Shown piece after piece: positions 6,683 to 59,189 of a DNA stretch of 64,000 nucleotides. Origin of the DNA: Loxodes magnus (taxonomy: Eukaryota; Ciliophora; Karyorelictea; Loxodida; Loxodidae). Below the pieces are notes generated by a model. That model saw nothing but the letters and a program-made list of their open reading frames with translations, did not search any database and was not told the origin of the DNA. Positions within the stretch are counted from its first letter, which is position 1. Every line of letters starts with the position of its first letter. The DNA is taken from positions 620,001-684,000 of the forward strand of contig CAMPDV010000060.1 in assembly GCA_946699065.1 (NCBI GenBank), in the 5' to 3' direction. A program made the translations under genes and the position numbers.

Positions 6683-7381
6683 ATGGTGGAGTCAATTAAG
6701 AACTATGAGTGTGGCATTTGTTTAGGTTTAATAGTGGAGCCTACAGTTCTCCCTAAATGCAGACATTAGTTCTGTATTTAATGCATAAGAGAAATGGATG
6801 TAAATAATTAGTAATGCTGTCCTCTATGTAGAACCAAATATTCTTCATAGACTTTAGTAGTGGATTAGAACTTAAAAAATAGGATATAATAAATGTTTCC
6901 TGAAGAGTTCCAAGTTAGAACTAAAGAAGTAGAAGAAATAAAGTAACAGTAGGCAAGTAAGGTACTAGTAAAATTTGCTTATGGAAATATGCATGAGCTA
7001 ATTCAAGATCCTCAAAATGCTAATAATTCATAAAAATCTAATAAACATAAATGAACTGTCTTTGTGAAATGTACAACACAAGGATTTAATACTGAAGACT
7101 TTGTTGATAAAGTTAAATTCGAGCTACATGAAACTTTTCCTTAGCCTATTTAATGGAAAACTAAGGTAGATAAATTCTAATTATCAAGGATAGGATGGGG
7201 CTATTTTACTATTCCAATTGAAGTTCATTTTAAAAAAGAAAGCGGACTTGGCTTTAAGATGATGAATCACACCTTAAACTTTAGTTAACCTGTAACTCAA
7301 AGTGAATTTACAATAAAAGCAGATATTTCTTTCCTACAAAAGAAAGCCTAGAAAACTACAGTAGCAGCAAAAAAGAAATGA
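6683..7381 (+). CDS. RING finger + YEATS domain fusion protein
   Basis: 232 residues, ATG 6683 to TGA 7379-7381. Residues about 9-50 form a C3HC4 RING finger: CGIC, then KCRHQFCIQC, then CCPLC, with ligands at the expected spacing. Residues about 110-200 match a YEATS domain: HKWTVFVK (its Trp encoded by TGA, exactly where YEATS proteins have Trp), KVKFELHETFPQP and GWGYFTIPIEVHFK. RING fingers of this type are usually E3 ubiquitin ligases. YEATS domains read acetylated or crotonylated histone lysines in chromatin complexes. A single small protein carrying both suggests an enzyme directed to acyl-marked chromatin, which is inference. The C-terminus is basic (KKAQKTTVAAKKK). It is transcribed divergently from the LRR gene. 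Confidence 0.9.
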
Positions 7382-28223: not shown

Positions 28224-29123
28224 TCAAAGTCTTGCTTTACCTATTTGAGCAACACCAACAATACACTATTTTCCTCTCTCCATAGTTTGACAGGAAAAAA
28301 TTATATCGTTCTTTTCTTTCCAAAAACTGAATTTAAGAGTTTCTCCTGGAAAAACATGAGAAACAAATCTGGCATGTAAAGACTAAAATAGATTTGGTTA
28401 ATTTCCGCAGAATTCTTTTAGAATAATTCTTGCTGAATATCCATAGAAGCACATTCCATGTAAGATTGGCTTTTCATATCCTCCTATTGCTGCCATATTT
28501 GGATCTGCATGTAGAGGATTAAAATCTCCTGAAAGTCTATAAATAAGAGCTTAATGAACTAATGTCTTTTCGCTTATTTCCTTATCTGGAGCTCTTTTTG
28601 GAATAGAAGGTAAATTTTCTTAAAAAAAGCCTTTATCACCAAAACCTCCAATACCTTTCATCAAGAATTTCCAGTAGTTAGTCTGATAAACTTCATCTTT
28701 ATTTGCAGGGTTAAAAATTTTATGCTCTAATATAACTAAGGCACCTTTACCCTTATCTTAAATATCCAATATCTTCTAAGAACTTATAACTGTTCCACTT
28801 GTTGGCATCTCTTTGTGGAAAATTTATTTTTATTCTCCATGTAGTATAAGCATAGGGTTGAAATCTGGAATTCCAGAACATTAATTTAATCTATCTATCC
28901 AACTAGCATCTATCGGATGAAGAACCGCTCCAAAAGTTGGAATACATTTAAACTCTGGATGAAGTTCATAAGTTAATTATAAATCATTATCAGAAGTTGG
29001 GTTTTCAGCGCCTGCTCCAACACCTAAAGCATACAATGACACTGTTTTTGAAGTATAAGAAACTTCGCAAGTTGAATGCTCAAATCCTCTAACTTTCTCT
29101 GGAATAACCTTTGTTGGCTTCAT
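28224..29123 (-). CDS. Peroxisomal 2-enoyl-CoA hydratase 2 (MaoC/MFE-2 hydratase type)
   Basis: 299 residues, ATG 29123 to TGA 28224-28226. It has double hot-dog architecture. The N-terminal half includes [15 protein letters not shown], as in MFE-2 hydratases. The C-terminal half has the hydratase-2 motif [17 protein letters not shown] (catalytic Asp and His) followed by [15 protein letters not shown]. It would hydrate trans-2-enoyl-CoA to (3R)-hydroxyacyl-CoA in beta-oxidation. In animals and fungi this unit is fused to a dehydrogenase; here it stands alone, as in plant ECH2. The last three residues, ARL, fit the PTS1 consensus [SAC][KRH][LM], so a peroxisomal location is likely. No intron. 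Confidence 0.92.
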
Positions 29124-31390
29124 TTATTTAAATTAACTTTTATACTAATTTTTTACATTTTCCCCAAATTACTTTCTAAACTTCTCTCTATTCCTATTTT
29201 CCTTTCTTACTCTAAATTACTCCAATTATTCTTATAAAGTATAAAATTATCTTCTATTAAGTTTAAAGAAAATCATAATAATGTTTAAAGGACATAAATA
29301 GATATTTTTGTATAATTCTTCTTTATCCAAAAGCTATCTATATTTTTAGATATTGAGTATAATGATTCATAATAGTTCTACTATACTATAATCAATATAT
29401 CTAAACTTAATTTTAATAACTTTAATTAAATATAAAGAATTTACTTAAGCTACATTTTTAACTTATTTAACTTAATTAAACCGCAAACTTAGATGAAAAT
29501 ATTAGTATTTTATCTTTTTATAAAGATTATTTTTATTTATTATATAAATTTCTTTTGATTCTTTTTATTATTAAATATCACTAAAATATAAAAATAAATA
29601 AATAGTTAAATCCTTTTAAATATTAGCTCTATAAGTAATTTTATCATACAATTACTATTAATTAGCAAGCTATAATAATTATGTTCTTTGCTTATACGAA
29701 GCAGAGTGAAATATAGTTTAAGCCTCATTTATACATATATCCCTTTTAATAAACACTCAATTTTATTTAATCTCATCTAAGTTATTTTAGGATTGCCAAT
29801 GATTCTCTTTTATAATAAATAAGATTATTTACAAAGCTATAATAAATAAAGGGACTATAATGCTAAAAAAGTAATAATTATAATAAAATAAACAAGGATA
29901 TAATACAATCAAAGGATATTCCATTATCAGTTAAAAAGTAGATAGCTATACAGTAATAATCTATAAGAGCTTTATTATTTAGTAATATTGCAATATAGTT
30001 GCATAACTACTTGGAATTATCACGCAAATTAAGCTAAAATACAAATTTATGCTAATTAAATCTCAAAGTCTCAATCATCATACTATATATCACAACCTAG
30101 AAAACTATATAAGCTTGAAAATTAATATATTATAAAATCTTTAGTTATAATAGCTTAAGTATACTTATGATAAAAGGAATTCTAATTAAAGCATTATATC
30201 TAAAAGGAATTTTAAAATTATTAAATTTAAAGTTTTAGTCTAATTTTTTATGCTTAATTTCTTAAATATCCTTTTAAGATTAAATAGGTAATGTTTACTA
30301 ATCCAGTTAAAAGGATAAAAAAAGAGATTTTATAACTTCAAAATTTAATTTAGAGTATTAAATTTCATAAAGGAAACTTGAGCTTAATTGATTTAATTAA
30401 AAATGAACCGATTTGTTTAACTTGATAAAGATTAAAGTTAACTCAATTCATTCAATAAGGCTAGAGAGGTTGAATTAATCAATTTAAATACCTTTTAATA
30501 ACTTATAGTTCTTTAAATACTTCAAGGAACATAAAACTTTAGAAAAATATTCGTTCTACATTTCTAAAACAATTCAACTATTCTTTATAGTTTATAATTA
30601 ACTATAAATATGAAGGCTAATATTGACTAGATTAATAAATTTAAAATGCACTTAATATATTATAATACATCTAATTACTATAAATAATAGAGTGAAAGCC
30701 AAATTAAACGTTTGCAATGCTTTGTATAATATTTTAATTTAATTAATGTATTAATTTTATAATACAAGTAGATAGTTATTTTTGCATATGATACTATTAT
30801 TTATGGAAAGCAACTGTTTAAGAATCAAATATACTTTAGTGCTTCATTTATTGTGATTTAGTTAAAATTAAATTATTTTTAGTTCTGTGATAAGTATAGA
30901 CTTATACATAGAATGAAAGGAGTTTTACTATATCTAGATGTGTAAATCATTATAATAGAGAGAAAATAAAAATGAACTTATCAAATATTCAATAATATAC
31001 AGTAGCATAGCTTAGAGTGTAAATAAAAGAATTGCTATACCAAATACTAAATAATTAGAAATGATCTAATCTGATTTAGTAATTGTTAGATGGTTAGTTT
31101 AAATATTATATTAACATACTGATTTTTGGAAACTTATATTATATGATTAAATTAAATTAGAAATAACATACACACCCTAGCAGTTGTCGTGCTGATGCTC
31201 AAAAAAAAGAGCTAGAGTATTTTAGTATCTGGTGTATCTGGTATTTATAGTCAAAAGCAAAGTTAGGTTTGCATAGTATTTTTTGTTAAAACTATCTTTC
31301 TTATAAACTTTAAAAGTAGTACAAAAATAAGGTTGATATAATTACTTCATTAATGCAGGGAATTAAAATTAAAGGTTATATAGAGATTAA
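29124..31390. other. AT-rich intergenic region (divergent promoters)
   Basis: 2.27 kb between the hydratase start and the carrier start. It is AT-rich throughout except for the GC-richer, foldable segment at 31172-31284, listed separately. Confidence 0.5.
31172..31284 (+). ncRNA. Possible small structured RNA ending at a T6 run
   Basis: A GC-richer island in AT-rich DNA. It can form a closing pair ACACC (31173) / GGTGT (31231) around two hairpins, AGCA/TGCT (loop GTTGTCG) and GCTC/GAGC (loop A8). About 45 nt after the closing stem is a TTTTTT run (31279-31284), which would serve as a Pol III terminator. No match to tRNA, U6, 5S or SRP RNA was recognised. It could instead be part of the carrier's promoter or 5' leader, whose ATG is at 31391. 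Confidence 0.25.
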
Positions 31391-32257
31391 ATGGAAAAGT
31401 CGACTATCTAGTTCGAGCTTAAAATATTTTTATCAGGGTTTATTTCAACTTTTACAACTGCTACTATTTTCTAACCTTTTGACGTTATGCGAACTACTAT
31501 GATTTTGCATCCATTAAATTTCGCACAAACTTTCAAGTTTCTTGCAGAAAAAGAAGGATTAAAAGGATTTTATAGAGGAACTTAGGTAGCCGGACTTAGA
31601 AGTGGATTAGGTGGAGGAATTTTCTGAATTACACTTGAAAGTCTTAAATCGCATAGATCTAACTCTCTTATTTAATAATTTGGACAAGATGCATTTTTAG
31701 CAGGATTTTCTAGAGGTTTTGGTGCAATAATCGTAAGTCCTTTAACAATGGTAAAATCGAGAATGGAAATTCCAGGTTTTAACAAGTATCATTCGATTGC
31801 TGATGGATTAAATAAAATTTTTAAAAAAGAAGGTGTCATGGGTTTCTATTCAGGTTTAATACCTTATTTATGTAGAGATGTACCATAAGCTGCTGTATGA
31901 TATGCTTCTTATGAACAATATCATCATTTTTTCTAAAGCTAATTCCAAATTAATAAAGAAATATGATATTGCAATTCTCTATGTGGAGGATTAGCAGGCC
32001 TAACGGCTCTAGCAATTCTACATCCTTTTGATGTAGTAAAGACAAGAATTCAAGTGGGATCATTTAATAAGAACGTTTAATAAAAATATAGTGGCCTTTT
32101 TGACGCTATTTTCAAAATATTTAACCATGATGGAATTATGGGATTCTATATGGGAATCCAGCCAAGAATGTGTAGGAAAGTTCTTTCTTCTTCATTTTTA
32201 CTTACCGTTTATGAGTTACTAAAACAGATAAGGTTAGATGAGAAAAACAGTTCTTAA
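31391..32257 (+). CDS. Mitochondrial carrier, SLC25A38/Hem25-like
   Basis: Three mitochondrial-carrier repeats of about 95 residues are present, with signature starts QPFDVMR (about 28), SPLTMVKSR (about 115) and HPFDVVKTR (about 213). Each is followed by G-F-Y-x-G type ends (KGFYRGT, MGFYSGL, MGFYMGI). The unusual second-repeat start SPLTMVKSR and the run GFSRGFGAIIVSP closely resemble SLC25A38, the glycine importer needed for haem synthesis. Trp by TGA occurs in GGGIFWITLESL and AAVWYASYEQ. The family end, TVYELLKQIRLDEKNSS, is reached at 32254, where a TAA (32255-32257) follows. The first in-frame TGA is only at 32369-32371, after 37 more AT-rich codons. I end the gene at the TAA because 288 residues is the normal length, but a 326-residue product is possible. 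Confidence 0.87.
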
Positions 32258-32462: not shown

Positions 32463-33857
32463 ATGTCTACACCAACTAGTAGGAGACTTAACTTGTTAGA
32501 AGGTCACCTTTAGATAACTGATAGCAGAAATAATAAAACATTTGAAGTTCCTGTGTATAAGAATTATGTTCACTCATCAGATCTACAAAAGATAAAGCAT
32601 AATAAGCAAGCTTTAAACGTATATGATCCTTATTACCATAACACAATTAATTGTAGTTCCTAAATTTCATATATAAATGGAATTAAAGGCACTCTTAGAT
32701 ACAGAGGTTTTGATATTTTTGATATTAGCTAGAAATGCAATTTCTTGGAATCTGCTTTTCTATTAATTTATGGAGAATTGCCAACAGTTGAGTAACTAAC
32801 TTAGTGGGAAAAGAAAATTAACGAGTAAAGGGATCTCAATTTGGATATTGTTAACATGATCAGCAGTTTTAAAGCAGAGTCTAATCCTATGGGAATGCTA
32901 GTTAGTGCATTTTCGGCCCTAGGAACTTATTTTTCTGAGTAAAATCCAAATATTGTTGGATAGAAAATCTATAACAACAAAAAAGTAGTTAATAAGCAAA
33001 TACACAGAATCTTAGGAATTATGCCTGTAATAGCTGCTCACGTTTTCATGCATAGATTTAAGCAAAGACCTGAAGATATTAACCCTAATCTAACGTATGT
33101 AGATCAGTTTCTATTCATGATAACAGGAAAAATTCCACATCCCATTATTTCAAAAATTTTAGAAATTTTATTTATTCTTCATATGGATCATGAACTTAAT
33201 AATAGTACAGCTATGATGAGGCATTTAGCTAGCACAGGAGTGGATGTTTATTCTGCTATTGCTGGAGCAATGGCTTCATTAAGTGGAAGAAATCATGGAG
33301 GAGCAAATTAATGTGTGTTAGTTATGCTGGAAAAAATAGGCAACGTTAATAATGTCAAAAATTTTGTAAACAAAGTAAAAAGAAAAAAGGAAGAATTAAT
33401 AGGATTCGGACATCCTGTCTATACTAATTATGATCCAAGGGCTAAAATTATCCTAAAATATTTACCTTAACTCTTAGAAATCGCTGGAAAACAGGAATTG
33501 GTTGATGTTGCTAATTATCTAGAATAAACAATTACCAATGATGATCACTTTATTGAACGAAAACTTTATCCTAATATTGACTTTTATTCGGGATTAGTTT
33601 ATAGAGCTATTGGGCTTCCTAATGATTATTTTTCTGTTATGTTTTCAATTCCAAGAGTTGTAGGATGGTTAGCCCATTGGAAAGAGTTTTTAGTAGATCC
33701 TGAAAATAAAATAGTAAGGCCTAGACAGAATTATATAGGAAAGCGAGAACTTATTTATAGGCCTATCAGTTAGTAGGAAGAAAAAGTAAAAGAGGATATT
33801 AACTCCGAAGACATTTGGTATCATAAAAGATACCACATTAGCTCAAGTTTAAATTGA
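32463..33857 (+). CDS. Citrate synthase, peroxisomal/glyoxysomal type with PTS2
   Basis: 464 residues, ATG 32463 to TGA 33855-33857, with a second TGA next to it. Catalytic regions are [19 protein letters not shown] (His near 243), [16 protein letters not shown] (His near 317) and [16 protein letters not shown] (Asp near 373). The substrate-contact block [11 protein letters not shown] is complete. The N-terminal half reads [33 protein letters not shown], as in plant glyoxysomal and bacterial citrate synthases. The N-terminus contains RLNLLEGHL (residues 8-16), a perfect PTS2 nonapeptide (R-L-x5-H-L), at the same place as in plant peroxisomal citrate synthases. It condenses acetyl-CoA with oxaloacetate. 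It starts 205 bp after the carrier's TAA, on the same strand. Confidence 0.96.
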
Positions 33858-54153: not shown

Positions 54154-55452
54154 ATGAGTAAAATCATAGGAAATTCTTTAAATGACCGAAAAGAAAAAAA
54201 TATTTATGGGAAAGGTCTTTTACCTACTTAATAAAAAGTTCGTGATTCTATGACAGGAAAACGTAAATTTCATGGTGCCTTTAGAGGAGGATTCTAAGCT
54301 GGATATAAGAACACTTGTGATACAAATTTAGGATTTTAACCTGCTAGTTTTATAAGCTCTAGAAGTAACAAAGCAAAAGTAAAATAGTAGAAAGTAGAAG
54401 ATTTATTGGATATTGAAGATATAGAAGAAAATTAAGATAACATTAAAGTATAAGAAGAACTTGCAATCAGCTTTAGCCAAAACTTTTAAAATTCTATAGG
54501 CTTTAAGATTTTATCGATATTAAAGACTTAAAAGAAAAAAATGTACGGAGCAGCAAGGCGGCCTTAAGCAGAATAACCATTAAGAAGAAACTTGAAAGAT
54601 TATTCAGGTCTTGGTTTCATAAGCAACTCAAATTAAAATTAAACTTAAACAAATCAAAAACCATAAACAAGTAAACAGAAGGATTCAATTAAAAGTATAT
54701 TTAAAACCAATAATTGAATTGATGGAGATTAAGAGGATTACAACATATAAGAACAGCCTGCTGCTTCTTTCTAACTTTTTAAGTTAAACCAGTTTATAAA
54801 GAATTCTAACGCCGAGTGAAGCTGCGAAAGTTAAATTGTGAAAGTTCCTAAAGAGTTTATTCCTAAAGTTATTTAATTTGAGCCAATGGAAATATTAAGG
54901 AAATTTCTCACTCCTAATTAAAGAGCTAAAATTTTAGGTGAAAAATAGAGCTGGTATTCAGATAATAGAAATAAAAACTTCTAGAACTTAAATTCTAAAT
55001 TTATAAGATCAAGCTAGTAAGAAAATCAAGTTCAAAGCTCTTCTTAAGCAAAGAATTCACAAAAAGAAAATTTTATAGATCTATGTAATGACTAAGAAGA
55101 GTAATTTCTTATTACTTCAATTACTGAAAATAATAAAACTGTGAATTAGTAGAGACTAACTCCAAAGCCTCCTCAAAGGAAAGTCTCCTCTTGAACTCCT
55201 TGTTAAATTTTGTGTTAGAAAATGAATATTATCACCACACATATTTAACCAAAAAAATTTAATGTATAGAGCTAAGAGATTGATCTTTAAACACCACTTC
55301 TTTGCAGAGAAGATGCAAAAGAATGGTAAGATCTCTTTGATTTCGTCTTTAATTAAAGTGAAACATCAAATTTTAGAAATGAACCTAAATAGGACTAGAC
55401 AAAAGAAAGGGAAAAACCAAAAAATAATAGAACAAGGTCAAGATCAAGATGA
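54154..55452 (+). CDS. GPATCH1-like splicing-associated protein with degenerate G-patch
   Basis: 432 residues, ATG 54154 to TGA 55450-55452. The N-terminus NIYGKGLLPTQQ...RKFHGAFRGGFQAGYKNTC matches the GPATCH1 N-terminal block (F-x-G-A-F-x-G-G-F-S/Q-A-G-Y-x-N-T). Next comes IGFKILSILKTQKKKMYGAARRP at the G-patch position, which keeps the start of the motif but lacks the Gly-rich W-x-x-G-x-G-x-G part. Further on are DYSGLGFISN, VSSWTPCQILCQKMNI (the W-x-P-x-x-L-C block, Trp from TGA), REDAKEWQDLFDFVFNQSE (the D-L-F-x-x-I/V-F block) and an Arg/Ser end TRSRSR. GPATCH1 associates with spliceosomes, where G-patches activate DEAH helicases. The loss of G-patch glycines is notable. Confidence 0.82.
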
Positions 55453-57677: not shown

Positions 57678-58315
57678 TAATGTTTTACTATATCTATTTA
57701 CTAAGTAATTAAAACCCTTTAATGTAAGTAGTAAGTAACTCTAATTATTTAATATTAAATTAAGAAGTTTAAGTTAAAGTAGAGACAAATATTAGGACTA
57801 TAGTTATATATCAATACTTATAATAACTCTTATTAGTGTAGTACACTTTTTTGTTTATTATTAAGAGTTGATTGCTTCTTTCAGTTTTATAACTTCAATA
57901 GATAGCTCTAGTAATTTTAAAGAGAATTAACTTAGTCATTAAGAAATATAACTTGCTGATGATATATATAAGTAGTAATATTTTTGAATTGAAGTGCATT
58001 TAATTAAAATCAGTAACTTAAAGAAAAGCTTGAAATAGCTTTAAAAATTATAGTCAAAATATTTGTTTATTGAGTTCTTATCTTATGAACTTTCTAAAAT
58101 GTACTTTCCTAATCAAATAATAAAGACTTGTTCTATTAAACAATTTTTTTGTGAAAATCATATAATTAAATAGCTTCTTTGCTTTGAAGATATATTTTTA
58201 GCTCCTTTTAAAGACTTGTAAAATTCTATCTAGAAATTTTTTTCTAAATAAAAAAAATAAAAAGAGGAAATAAAATAGTAAGCTATATGAACAACTAAAA
58301 AATTGCATTAATTGA
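57678..58315. other. AT-rich intergenic region
   Basis: About 640 bp between two minus-strand genes. The FYVE gene frame stays open here without coding character until TGA at 58010-58012. Confidence 0.5.
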
Positions 58316-59189
58316 TTAAAATAAGACACAATTGTTTTGACAACAACTTTGCCCATCAGATCCAACAATTCTTCCTTTATTTCTCGCATCAGTAACACTA
58401 TCTCTGAAAGGAAAAGTCCCTTAAGAACCTTAAGTTTCTTGCTCATTAGAGGTTATATCAGCTGTTTCAGATTAATTAAAAATATTTGTTTCTTTAGCCT
58501 AGCGAAACTTTTATTCTAATTCTTATTTTTCTTTTAAATCTTTCTCCTTTTTAATTTCAAGTTCAAGATATTCTATTCTTTTTCTCGCCTACTCAAGTTC
58601 TGTTTTATAACGTTTATTTAACGTCTCTCTGCATAAAATCTTACGTGATAACTTCTCCTTTTTAGGATTAATCTAAAGCAATCCTAAGGTTTTCAGCTAC
58701 ATTTCTGGTATGCTCGTGTTTTAATTATTCTTCCTAGAAAAGCTTTCTAATACTGCTTTCCTTCTCTAAATTAGAATTTTCTAAAAATTTGATTTTATTT
58801 TCAACTGCTTTAATTTAACTTTCTTGCTTTTCTATTTCTTGATTTTTTAACTGCATCATTTCTTCAAATCTTTCTATCTTTTCTTGTATAAGCTTATTTT
58901 CAGCATGCAAAGCTTCATTAATAGCATTCTAAACAAATTCTATTTCGCATAAGTCACAAATTCTTGCTTTACCACTTTTAGTCTATCTTTATTTTTAGCT
59001 ATGCTCTTTGCATACAGAATGTCCACATTATCTACAATGATGCCTACTCAATAATATTGTAAAAGCCCTTCCACATATTCTGCAACTTTTATCAAATTTA
59101 AATTAAGTTTCTTTCCCTAAAGATTCTATGCTATATGTACTCGCTTTAGAAATTGGTTGTTCATCAAATGTGTTGTTTGGCTTTTCCAT
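58316..59189 (-). CDS. FYVE zinc finger + coiled-coil protein ending in a CaaX box
   Basis: Exons 59189-58645 and 58628-58316 join across a 16-nt intron to give 285 residues. A FYVE finger lies at about 35-85: CRICGRAFTILLSRHHCRQCG, then HSVCKEH and ARICDLC, with the basic R-HHCR-CG motif that binds PI3P on endosomes. The WxxD part is not seen. Residues about 90-230 are coiled coil (ERFEEMMQLKNQEIEKQES; RKRIEYLELEIKKEK). The C-terminus reads GSDGQSCCQNNCVLF followed directly by TAA (58316-58318). CVLF is a good CaaX prenylation box, with extra Cys for palmitoylation. The first in-frame TGA is 102 codons later (58010-58012) through AT-rich sequence, so TAA is the likely stop. A membrane-tethered endosomal adaptor is inferred. 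Confidence 0.82.
58629..58644 (-). other. 16-nt intron (GTAAGATTTTATGCAG)
   Basis: Removal joins KGEVIT to ETLNKRYKTELEQARKR in one coiled-coil frame. With it kept, the frame runs into several TGA. The ends, length and position of the internal A match the other two 16-nt introns. Confidence 0.87.

What the first reader, a model, noticed from the sequence alone, without database searches (positions are those of the whole stretch)
58316..58333. FYVE gene: TAA directly after a CaaX box (CVLF)
The frame ends ...SCCQNNCVLF-TAA. A farnesyl/geranylgeranyl CaaX box is functional only at the extreme C-terminus, which independently argues that this TAA stops translation although TAA is Gln elsewhere. 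The next in-frame TGA is 102 codons further. With the carrier and START genes, this is the third case in 64 kb, suggesting that all three codons keep stop function in a position-dependent way.
Basis: partly seen in the sequence, partly recalled or inferred. Interest (0 to 1): 0.75.

Follow-up and report, generated by a model that had tools for sequence, protein, structure and literature searches.

The report
A glutamine codon doubling as stop
In this ciliate the triplet TAA normally means glutamine, but comparison with sister genes indicates that here, right after a lipid-anchor signal, it ends the protein, as it seems to in a minority of other genes of the same genome.

Summary
On the minus strand a FYVE gene (exons 59189–58645 and 58628–58319) reads …GQSCCQNNCVLF then TAA (58318–58316); the next in-frame TGA is 102 codons on. 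The genome (705.7 Mb) matches in size and code the published Loxodes magnus macronuclear assembly (706 Mbp), described as having UGA as its only stop and UAA as glutamine.

Evidence that this TAA is a stop: nine FYVE paralogues in the genome all end in a CaaX box, eight followed by TGA, one (CLVF) by TAA. Coding signal and G+C fall at the TAA. Among 130 Ras/Rab gene tails, C-terminal cysteines precede TGA in 54 and TAA in 14 (11 strong). Two of 20 histone tails show TAA at the expected end; one of the two has a TGA five codons on.

UAG gave no clean stop case, so the claim that all three codons keep stop function holds for UGA and UAA only.

Dual use of UAA in karyorelicts is not a new idea (recalled 2022 abstract; loose statements in two papers), but the 2024 genome paper says UGA only. 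Best reading: UAA and UGA are both dual, UAG sense only. No RNA or protein data were available.

The parts
58645..59189 (-). exon 1 of the FYVE, coiled-coil-like, CaaX gene (ATG at 59189)
   Evidence: open frame with TAA/TAG=Gln; Pfam FYVE hit
58944..59090 (-). FYVE zinc-finger domain
   Evidence: PF01363, 40.7 bits in the genome search; 41.8 and 41.3 bits in the spliced proteins
58629..58644 (-). 16-nt intron GTAAGATTTTATGCAG
   Evidence: restores the frame; same site holds a GTAA..AG stretch of 16-25 nt in 9 of 9 genes spliced, this one included
58319..58628 (-). coding part of exon 2: helical region, linker with FRDSV motif, C-terminal cysteines
   Evidence: alignment with nine paralogues; positive codon score in the five blocks before the TAA
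58319..58330 (-). CaaX box Cys-Val-Leu-Phe
   Evidence: paralogues have CIVM, CLVF, CLVM, CLIM, CLLM, CFIM, CFIM, CLIM, CLVF at the same place
58316..58318 (-). TAA inferred to be the stop codon
   Evidence: aligned with TGA in 8 paralogues and TAA in one; G+C 0.350 in 120 nt before and 0.192 after
58010..58012 (-). next in-frame TGA, 102 codons past the TAA; not the likely stop
   Evidence: no block between with a clearly positive coding score in any frame
   Evidence: PF00153, three stretches, E 3.7e-50 in 31382-32170
32255..32257 (+). TAA after ...DEKNSS, candidate stop of the carrier gene
   Evidence: G+C 0.325 before, 0.217 after; next gene (looks like citrate synthase by eye, not checked by Pfam) has an ATG near 32463

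Best explanation
The TAA at 58318-58316 is the true stop of a FYVE protein with a C-terminal CaaX box. In this Loxodes genome UAA has two meanings: glutamine in the body of a gene, and stop close to the 3' end of some genes, as UGA has (tryptophan and stop); UAG is only glutamine. Shown here by sequence: the homologous C-terminal CaaX box, TGA in the same place in eight paralogues and TAA in a ninth, the fall of coding signal, and TAA at expected ends of Ras/Rab and H3-variant genes. Inferred: that the release factor wins over the UAA-reading tRNA-Gln near the poly(A) tail, and that the CaaX cysteine is prenylated so that the protein sits on PI3P-bearing membranes with two anchors (FYVE plus lipid).
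For: Nine paralogues: 9 of 9 end in CaaX, 8 followed by TGA and 1 by TAA, with the intron site shared by 9 of 9 genes spliced and a D-S linker motif in 8 of 10. Ras/Rab tails, 130 examined of 150 hits: by a fixed pattern, cysteine motif followed by TGA 42, TAA 13, TAG 4; counted by cysteine in the last four residues before the first TGA, 57 tails, of which L027, L055 and L065 look like chance, so 54 TGA against 14 TAA (L121 added by eye). Both kinds lie 25-55 codons from the domain and show the same G+C drop (0.305 to 0.208 and 0.309 to 0.199). In 80 tails without motif+TGA, TAA follows 13 of 72 motif sites against 4.2 expected, p 2.4e-4. Relatives that differ at the stop: L026 ..NCNC-TGA and L040 ..SCNC-TAA; L117, L128, L133 CNVL/CNVL/CNLL-TGA and L139 CNVL-TAA. 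Histones: 18 of 20 tails TGA, 2 H3 variants TAA. In the last 20 codons of 58 Ras/Rab genes TAA:TAG is 30:38 against 122:54 in 30 domains (Fisher p 3.8e-4); the published transcripts show UAA but not UAG depleted there.
Against: The 2024 genome paper states that UGA is the only stop. No transcript, ribosome or peptide data were available to me. Three of the 14 Ras/Rab TAA cases are weak: L036 could be a one-base insertion in CEKC-TGA, L053 lies beyond an in-frame TGA, L092 has TGA as the next codon. H3 variant L169 has a TGA five codons after its TAA. In the enrichment test the sites are not independent (13 sites in 12 tails) and TAT also came out high (8 against 2.9, p 0.0075). Glutamine codons of every kind are scarcer in the last 8 codons (TAA 1, TAG 6, CAA 4), so that fall is only partly about UAA. 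Hsp70 ends gave no stand-alone TAA. The frame of the rejected intron model scores positive in the last two blocks before the TAA (+3.7, +4.6). eRF1 keeps NIKS but has a changed TAS part, which does not settle which stops it reads. Single-base assembly errors were not tested with reads.
Confidence: 0.88

Rival explanations
1. UGA is the only stop. The TAA is read as glutamine and the protein continues 102 codons to TGA 58012, so that the CaaX box is internal and not functional in this copy.
For: Published code of Loxodes; the frame is open to 58012.
Against: The extension has no clear coding signal and G+C about 0.19-0.20, and the CaaX box would be kept for nothing. Ras/Rab genes would have to carry the same kind of extension (next in-frame TGA 16-101 codons away in 12 of 14, 1 in L092, beyond the stretch held in L053).
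Confidence: 0.06
2. A short intron before the end switches the frame, and the gene ends at a TGA in another frame (58056-58054). I first favoured this: a 25-nt GT..AG stretch at 58428-58404 leads to a frame with few TAA/TAG codons.
Against: A search of the genome with the alternative protein found only itself. That frame scores negative in all seven blocks after the TAA position (-2.6 to -7.0).
Confidence: 0.02
3. Programmed read-through: UAA here ends most chains, giving the prenylated form, while some ribosomes insert glutamine and make a longer form without lipid anchor.
For: UAA is read as glutamine elsewhere in this genome; the frame stays open for 102 codons.
Against: No clear coding signal in the extension. 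The extension was not compared with relatives beyond the whole-gene DNA search, which matched only 61-62 bases of the FYVE part in two of them.
Confidence: 0.03

Closest known systems
Karyorelict nuclear code (NCBI table 27; Loxodes, Parduczia)
   Same: UAA and UAG as glutamine, UGA as tryptophan inside genes and stop near the end; UAA depleted before stops (PMC11441545, section 9 read; PMC4967479, passages).
   Different: UAA itself stands at the expected stop in a minority of genes. From memory, not from a call, the 2022 Peer Community Journal abstract already said that a small minority of transcripts may use stop-UAA; that paper is not held. PMC11687900 and PMC12153298 (passages) say loosely that in Karyorelictea all stop codons are reassigned and can also be stops.
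Condylostoma magnum code (NCBI table 28)
   Same: UAA both glutamine and stop, resolved by nearness to the mRNA end (PMC4967479, passages).
   Different: There all three codons are used as stops; here no clean UAG stop was seen.
Blastocrithidia code
   Same: UAA has a dual sense and stop meaning (PMC12153298, passages).
   Different: There UAA means glutamate and is the only stop.
[quoted passage not shown]
   Same: FYVE plus coiled coil, prenylated, mislocalised when prenylation is removed (PMC6667170, one passage).
   Different: Relationship to the Loxodes family not tested; the genome search gave ten such Loxodes genes.

Membership tests
Karyorelict code (table 27) | UAA and UAG encode glutamine inside genes | tested here: met
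   in-frame TAA/TAG inside FYVE and Ras domain matches; that the residue is glutamine rests on the publication
Karyorelict code (table 27) | UGA encodes tryptophan inside genes | tested here: met
   in-frame TGA inside FYVE and Ras domain matches; EIFT-TGA-LA in L114, L134 (and EIFA-TGA-LA in L136) where L115 has EIFT-TGG-LA
Karyorelict code (table 27) | UGA is the only stop | tested here: not met
   expected end followed by TAA in 14 of 130 Ras/Rab tails (11 strong; 54 have TGA), 2 of 10 FYVE genes, 2 of 20 histone tails
Condylostoma code (table 28) | UAG also used as stop | tested here: not met
   no TAG at an expected end without a TGA within 7 codons among 130 Ras/Rab, 10 FYVE and 20 histone tails
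Nearness-dependent stop/sense code | ambiguous codons depleted just before the stop | tested here: met
   last 20 codons of 58 genes: TGA 0 of 1160, TAA 30, TAG 38; 30 domains: TGA 23, TAA 122, TAG 54 of 4200; Fisher for TAA:TAG p 3.8e-4
FYVE domain (PF01363) | profile score over Pfam's cut-off | tested here: met
   41.8 bits against 27.8
FYVE domain (PF01363) | WxxD, R(R/K)HHCR and RVC signatures (motifs recalled) | tested here: inconclusive
   SRHHCR and RIC present; the tryptophan of WxxD is phenylalanine (FKFD)
CaaX prenylation motif | Cys-a-a-X at the extreme C-terminus, conserved | tested here: met
   10 of 10 family members, if the TAA in two of them is a stop
CaaX prenylation motif | the cysteine carries a prenyl group | not testable with these tools
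   needs labelling or mass spectrometry
Plasmodium FCP family | common descent outside the FYVE domain | not tested
   no comparison made

The most novel reading that the evidence does not exclude
Loxodes magnus uses a code that fits neither NCBI table 27 nor 28: UGA (Trp/stop) and UAA (Gln/stop) are both ambiguous while UAG is sense only, with UAA ending roughly a tenth to a fifth of the genes in three of the four families looked at (Ras/Rab, FYVE, histones; not seen alone in Hsp70), possibly with a preference for a preceding pyrimidine.
Probability: 0.7. Interest if true: 0.7.

Novelty: new variant of a known kind. Interest (0 to 1): 0.6.

Why it matters
The published gene models for this genome were made with UGA as the only stop, so genes ending in UAA would be extended into their 3' flanks, which hides prenylation boxes and other C-terminal signals. 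A genome in which UAA is still partly stop while UAG is sense only would be an intermediate stage of codon reassignment that can be studied directly, and it makes concrete predictions for eRF1 and tRNA competition.

Tried and rejected
A 25-nt intron that would end the gene at a TGA in another frame was my first explanation.

A preceding-base rule: TAA stops had a pyrimidine before them in 16 of 16 Ras/Rab and FYVE cases against 24 of 50 TGA stops (Fisher p 8e-5; p 0.0044 for Ras/Rab alone with three paralogues counted once). It was found after looking, the genes are related, three of the 16 are weak cases, and the two H3 variants found later break it (ATG-TAA). Sense TAA codons near the end show no shift in that base. 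Kept as a tendency only.

Sequence error TGA to TAA: not tested with reads; judged unlikely because the same occurs at several homologous ends. ARAGORN found no tRNA in the window. Hsp70: 12 tails fetched of 68 hits (one per tandem array where possible). By eye 10 show a recognisable end, 8 with TGA and 2 with TAA then TGA (L143, L152); L149 and L153 were unclear.

Rows dropped before counts: 20 of 150 Ras/Rab hits were not fetched (12 with a partial domain, 8 others); 11 of 31 histone hits were not fetched. Of the 130 Ras/Rab tails, 59 have neither a cysteine end before the first TGA nor a TAA end, among them 5 Ran-like EEDEDL-TGA, a group ending in ..Y-TGA, and tails where an intron or other ending breaks the frame.

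Full report
What is there. On the minus strand of the window, 59189–58316, lies a gene with a FYVE zinc finger (PF01363, 41.8 bits against a cut-off of 27.8), a coiled-coil-like middle (judged by eye) and a linker, 285 codons in two exons separated by a 16-nt intron at 58644–58629. It ends …PFRDSVTDARNKGRIVGSDGQSCCQNNCVLF followed by TAA at 58318–58316.

Which organism. The window is G000:C60:620001–684000 of a genome of 705,730,643 bases. The published Loxodes magnus macronuclear assembly is 706 Mbp (PMC11441545, passages; section 9 read). The code agrees: TAA, TAG and TGA all occur in frame inside conserved domains. The identification is by size and code, not by a name on the record. The paper states that UGA is the only stop and also tryptophan, that UAA and UGA, but not UAG, are depleted in about 20 codons before stops, that 3'-UTRs have a median of 41 bp, and that introns have a mode of 17 bp with 93% at 25 bp or less.

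A wrong turn. A 25-nt GT…AG stretch at 58428–58404 would switch to a frame with far fewer TAA/TAG codons, ending at TGA 58056–58054. This would have made the finding an artefact. The paralogues rejected it.

The paralogues decide. A FYVE family search and a DNA search of the genome gave 16 FYVE hits, the window gene among them. Six (L001–L005, L157) look like long PIKfyve-type proteins by eye (not checked by profile). The other nine besides the window gene share its layout, although L161 was read only from the end of its FYVE domain onward and aligns weakly. All nine end in a CaaX box: CIVM, CLVF, CLVM, CLIM, CLLM, CFIM, CFIM and CLIM followed by TGA, and CLVF (L161) followed by TAA. With the window gene that is 10 of 10 with CaaX, 8 TGA and 2 TAA. 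An intron of 16–25 nt sits at the same site in 9 of 9 genes spliced, and a D-S motif such as FKDSV stands before the C-terminus in 8 of 10 (not L158, L161).

The coding signal ends there. The +1 frame, that of the rejected intron, is also positive in the last two blocks before the TAA (+3.7, +4.6), so the score alone does not exclude it there. G+C is 0.350 in the 120 nt before and 0.192 after, like the published 33.5% and 18.6% for coding and 3'-UTR.

Is it one gene or many? Ras/Rab proteins as a rule need their cysteines at the very end, so they test the stop. Of 150 hits 130 tails were read (30 loci and 100 fetched regions). By a fixed pattern, a C-terminal cysteine motif is followed by TGA in 42, TAA in 13, TAG in 4; 4 tails have another CC or CxC motif and 67 have none. 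Of the 4 others, L044, L095 and L134 end in TGA and L121 (CCFKC) in TAA, which makes 14 TAA. A recount by cysteine within four residues of the first in-frame TGA gives 57 tails, 54 after setting aside L027, L055 and L065, whose TGA lies far downstream. So 54 TGA stand against 14 TAA. The four TAG cases reach TGA 1 (L013, L014), 3 (L035) and 7 (L114) codons later and are among the 54. Distances from the domain end are the same (25–55 codons) and so are the G+C drops. In the 80 tails without motif+TGA there were 72 motif sites; TAA follows 13 (in 12 tails) against 4.2 expected (p 2.4e-4), TAG 2 against 1.3, and TAT 8 against 2.9 (p 0.0075). Three of the 14 are weak: L036 (possible one-base insertion), L053 (beyond an in-frame TGA), L092 (TAA then TGA). 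Close relatives differ at the stop: L026/L040 and L117, L128, L133/L139. The next in-frame TGA after these TAA codons is 16–101 codons away in 12 of 14, 1 codon in L092, and not within the stretch held in L053.

Other families. Histones (kinds named by eye): of 20 tails fetched of 31 hits, 18 end with TGA. Two H3 variants end …RGEKHLTDM-TAA where a sister variant has …RGEKQLTDV-TGA; one (L172) has three TAA in a row, the other (L169) has a TGA five codons on. Hsp70: of 12 tails fetched, 10 show an end, 8 TGA and 2 TAA-TGA (L143, L152), so no stand-alone TAA. In the window, ribosomal protein S20e, a hydratase and a kinase-like gene end with TGA, and the mitochondrial carrier runs into TAA at 32255.

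Depletion. In the last 20 codons of 58 Ras/Rab genes TGA is absent (0 of 1160), and TAA is 30 against 38 TAG. In 30 Ras domains (4200 codons) TGA is 23, TAA 122 and TAG 54 (Fisher for TAA:TAG p 3.8e-4). By distance (17–24, 9–16, 1–8 codons before the stop) TAA is 28, 14, 1; TAG 12, 28, 6; CAA 11, 25, 4. The last 8 codons are thus poor in glutamine of every kind, but the steady fall is peculiar to TAA. The published transcripts show depletion of UAA and not of UAG.

How it probably works. Shown by sequence: where the protein should end, and which codon stands there. Inferred: near the poly(A) tail the release factor outcompetes the glutamine tRNA at UAA, as proposed for the ambiguous codes of Condylostoma and Parduczia (PMC4967479, passages). 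The genome search gave three eRF1-domain hits. By eye one (L162) is the eRF1-like Pelota, and the two on C196, 35 kb apart, are eRF1. The one read (L163) keeps NIKS but has RAQ in place of TAS, the Q itself written as TAA (TAS recalled). That does not tell which stops it reads. The FYVE and CaaX parts suggest a protein held on endosomal membranes by PI3P and a prenyl group; Plasmodium has a prenylated FYVE coiled-coil protein that loses its place without the prenyl group (PMC6667170, one passage). Kinship between the two was not tested.

Known or new. The 2024 genome paper says UGA only. Two later papers say in passing that in Karyorelictea all stop codons are reassigned and can also be stops (PMC11687900 and PMC12153298, passages), without data on Loxodes in the passages seen. 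From memory, the abstract of the 2022 Peer Community Journal paper on karyorelict codes already says that a small minority of transcripts may use stop-UAA; it is not held. Searches listed no paper that I saw to give gene-level evidence for UAA stops in Loxodes; I read only listings and the passages named. So the idea is not new. What is added is gene-by-gene comparative evidence, a rough share (14 of 68 Ras/Rab ends, 11 of 65 without the weak cases; 2 of 10 FYVE; 2 of 20 histones; 0 of 10 Hsp70 alone), and the contrast with UAG.

Noticed in passing
G000:C196:19713-20081 (L163) and 54613-54981: Two eRF1-domain copies about 35 kb apart. The copy read has RAQNIKS instead of TASNIKS (recalled) in the stop-recognition loop, its Q encoded by TAA.
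   Followed up: partly
G000:C45, C86 and C854: Tandem arrays of nearly identical Hsp70 matches, about 2.1-2.8 kb apart.
   Followed up: no
L022, L025, L032, L062, L067, L073, L077, L085, L112: A group of Rab-like genes without C-terminal cysteines, ending in a tyrosine followed by TGA (such as KDLY, KNLY, ANLY), apparently not prenylated.
   Followed up: no
L013, L014, L092, L143, L152: Ends written as TAG-TGA or TAA-TGA, as if a weak or lost stop were backed up by TGA.
   Followed up: partly
window 6683-7372 (+): RING finger followed by a YEATS domain in one open stretch.
   Followed up: no
window 28230-29123 (-): MaoC/MFE-2 hydratase ending ...KARL-TGA, which resembles a peroxisomal targeting end (recalled motif).
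   Followed up: no
L088 and L131: Rab-like genes followed by a 16-residue tandem repeat (ILSKV(K/E)RKAYFKKFHQ).
   Followed up: no
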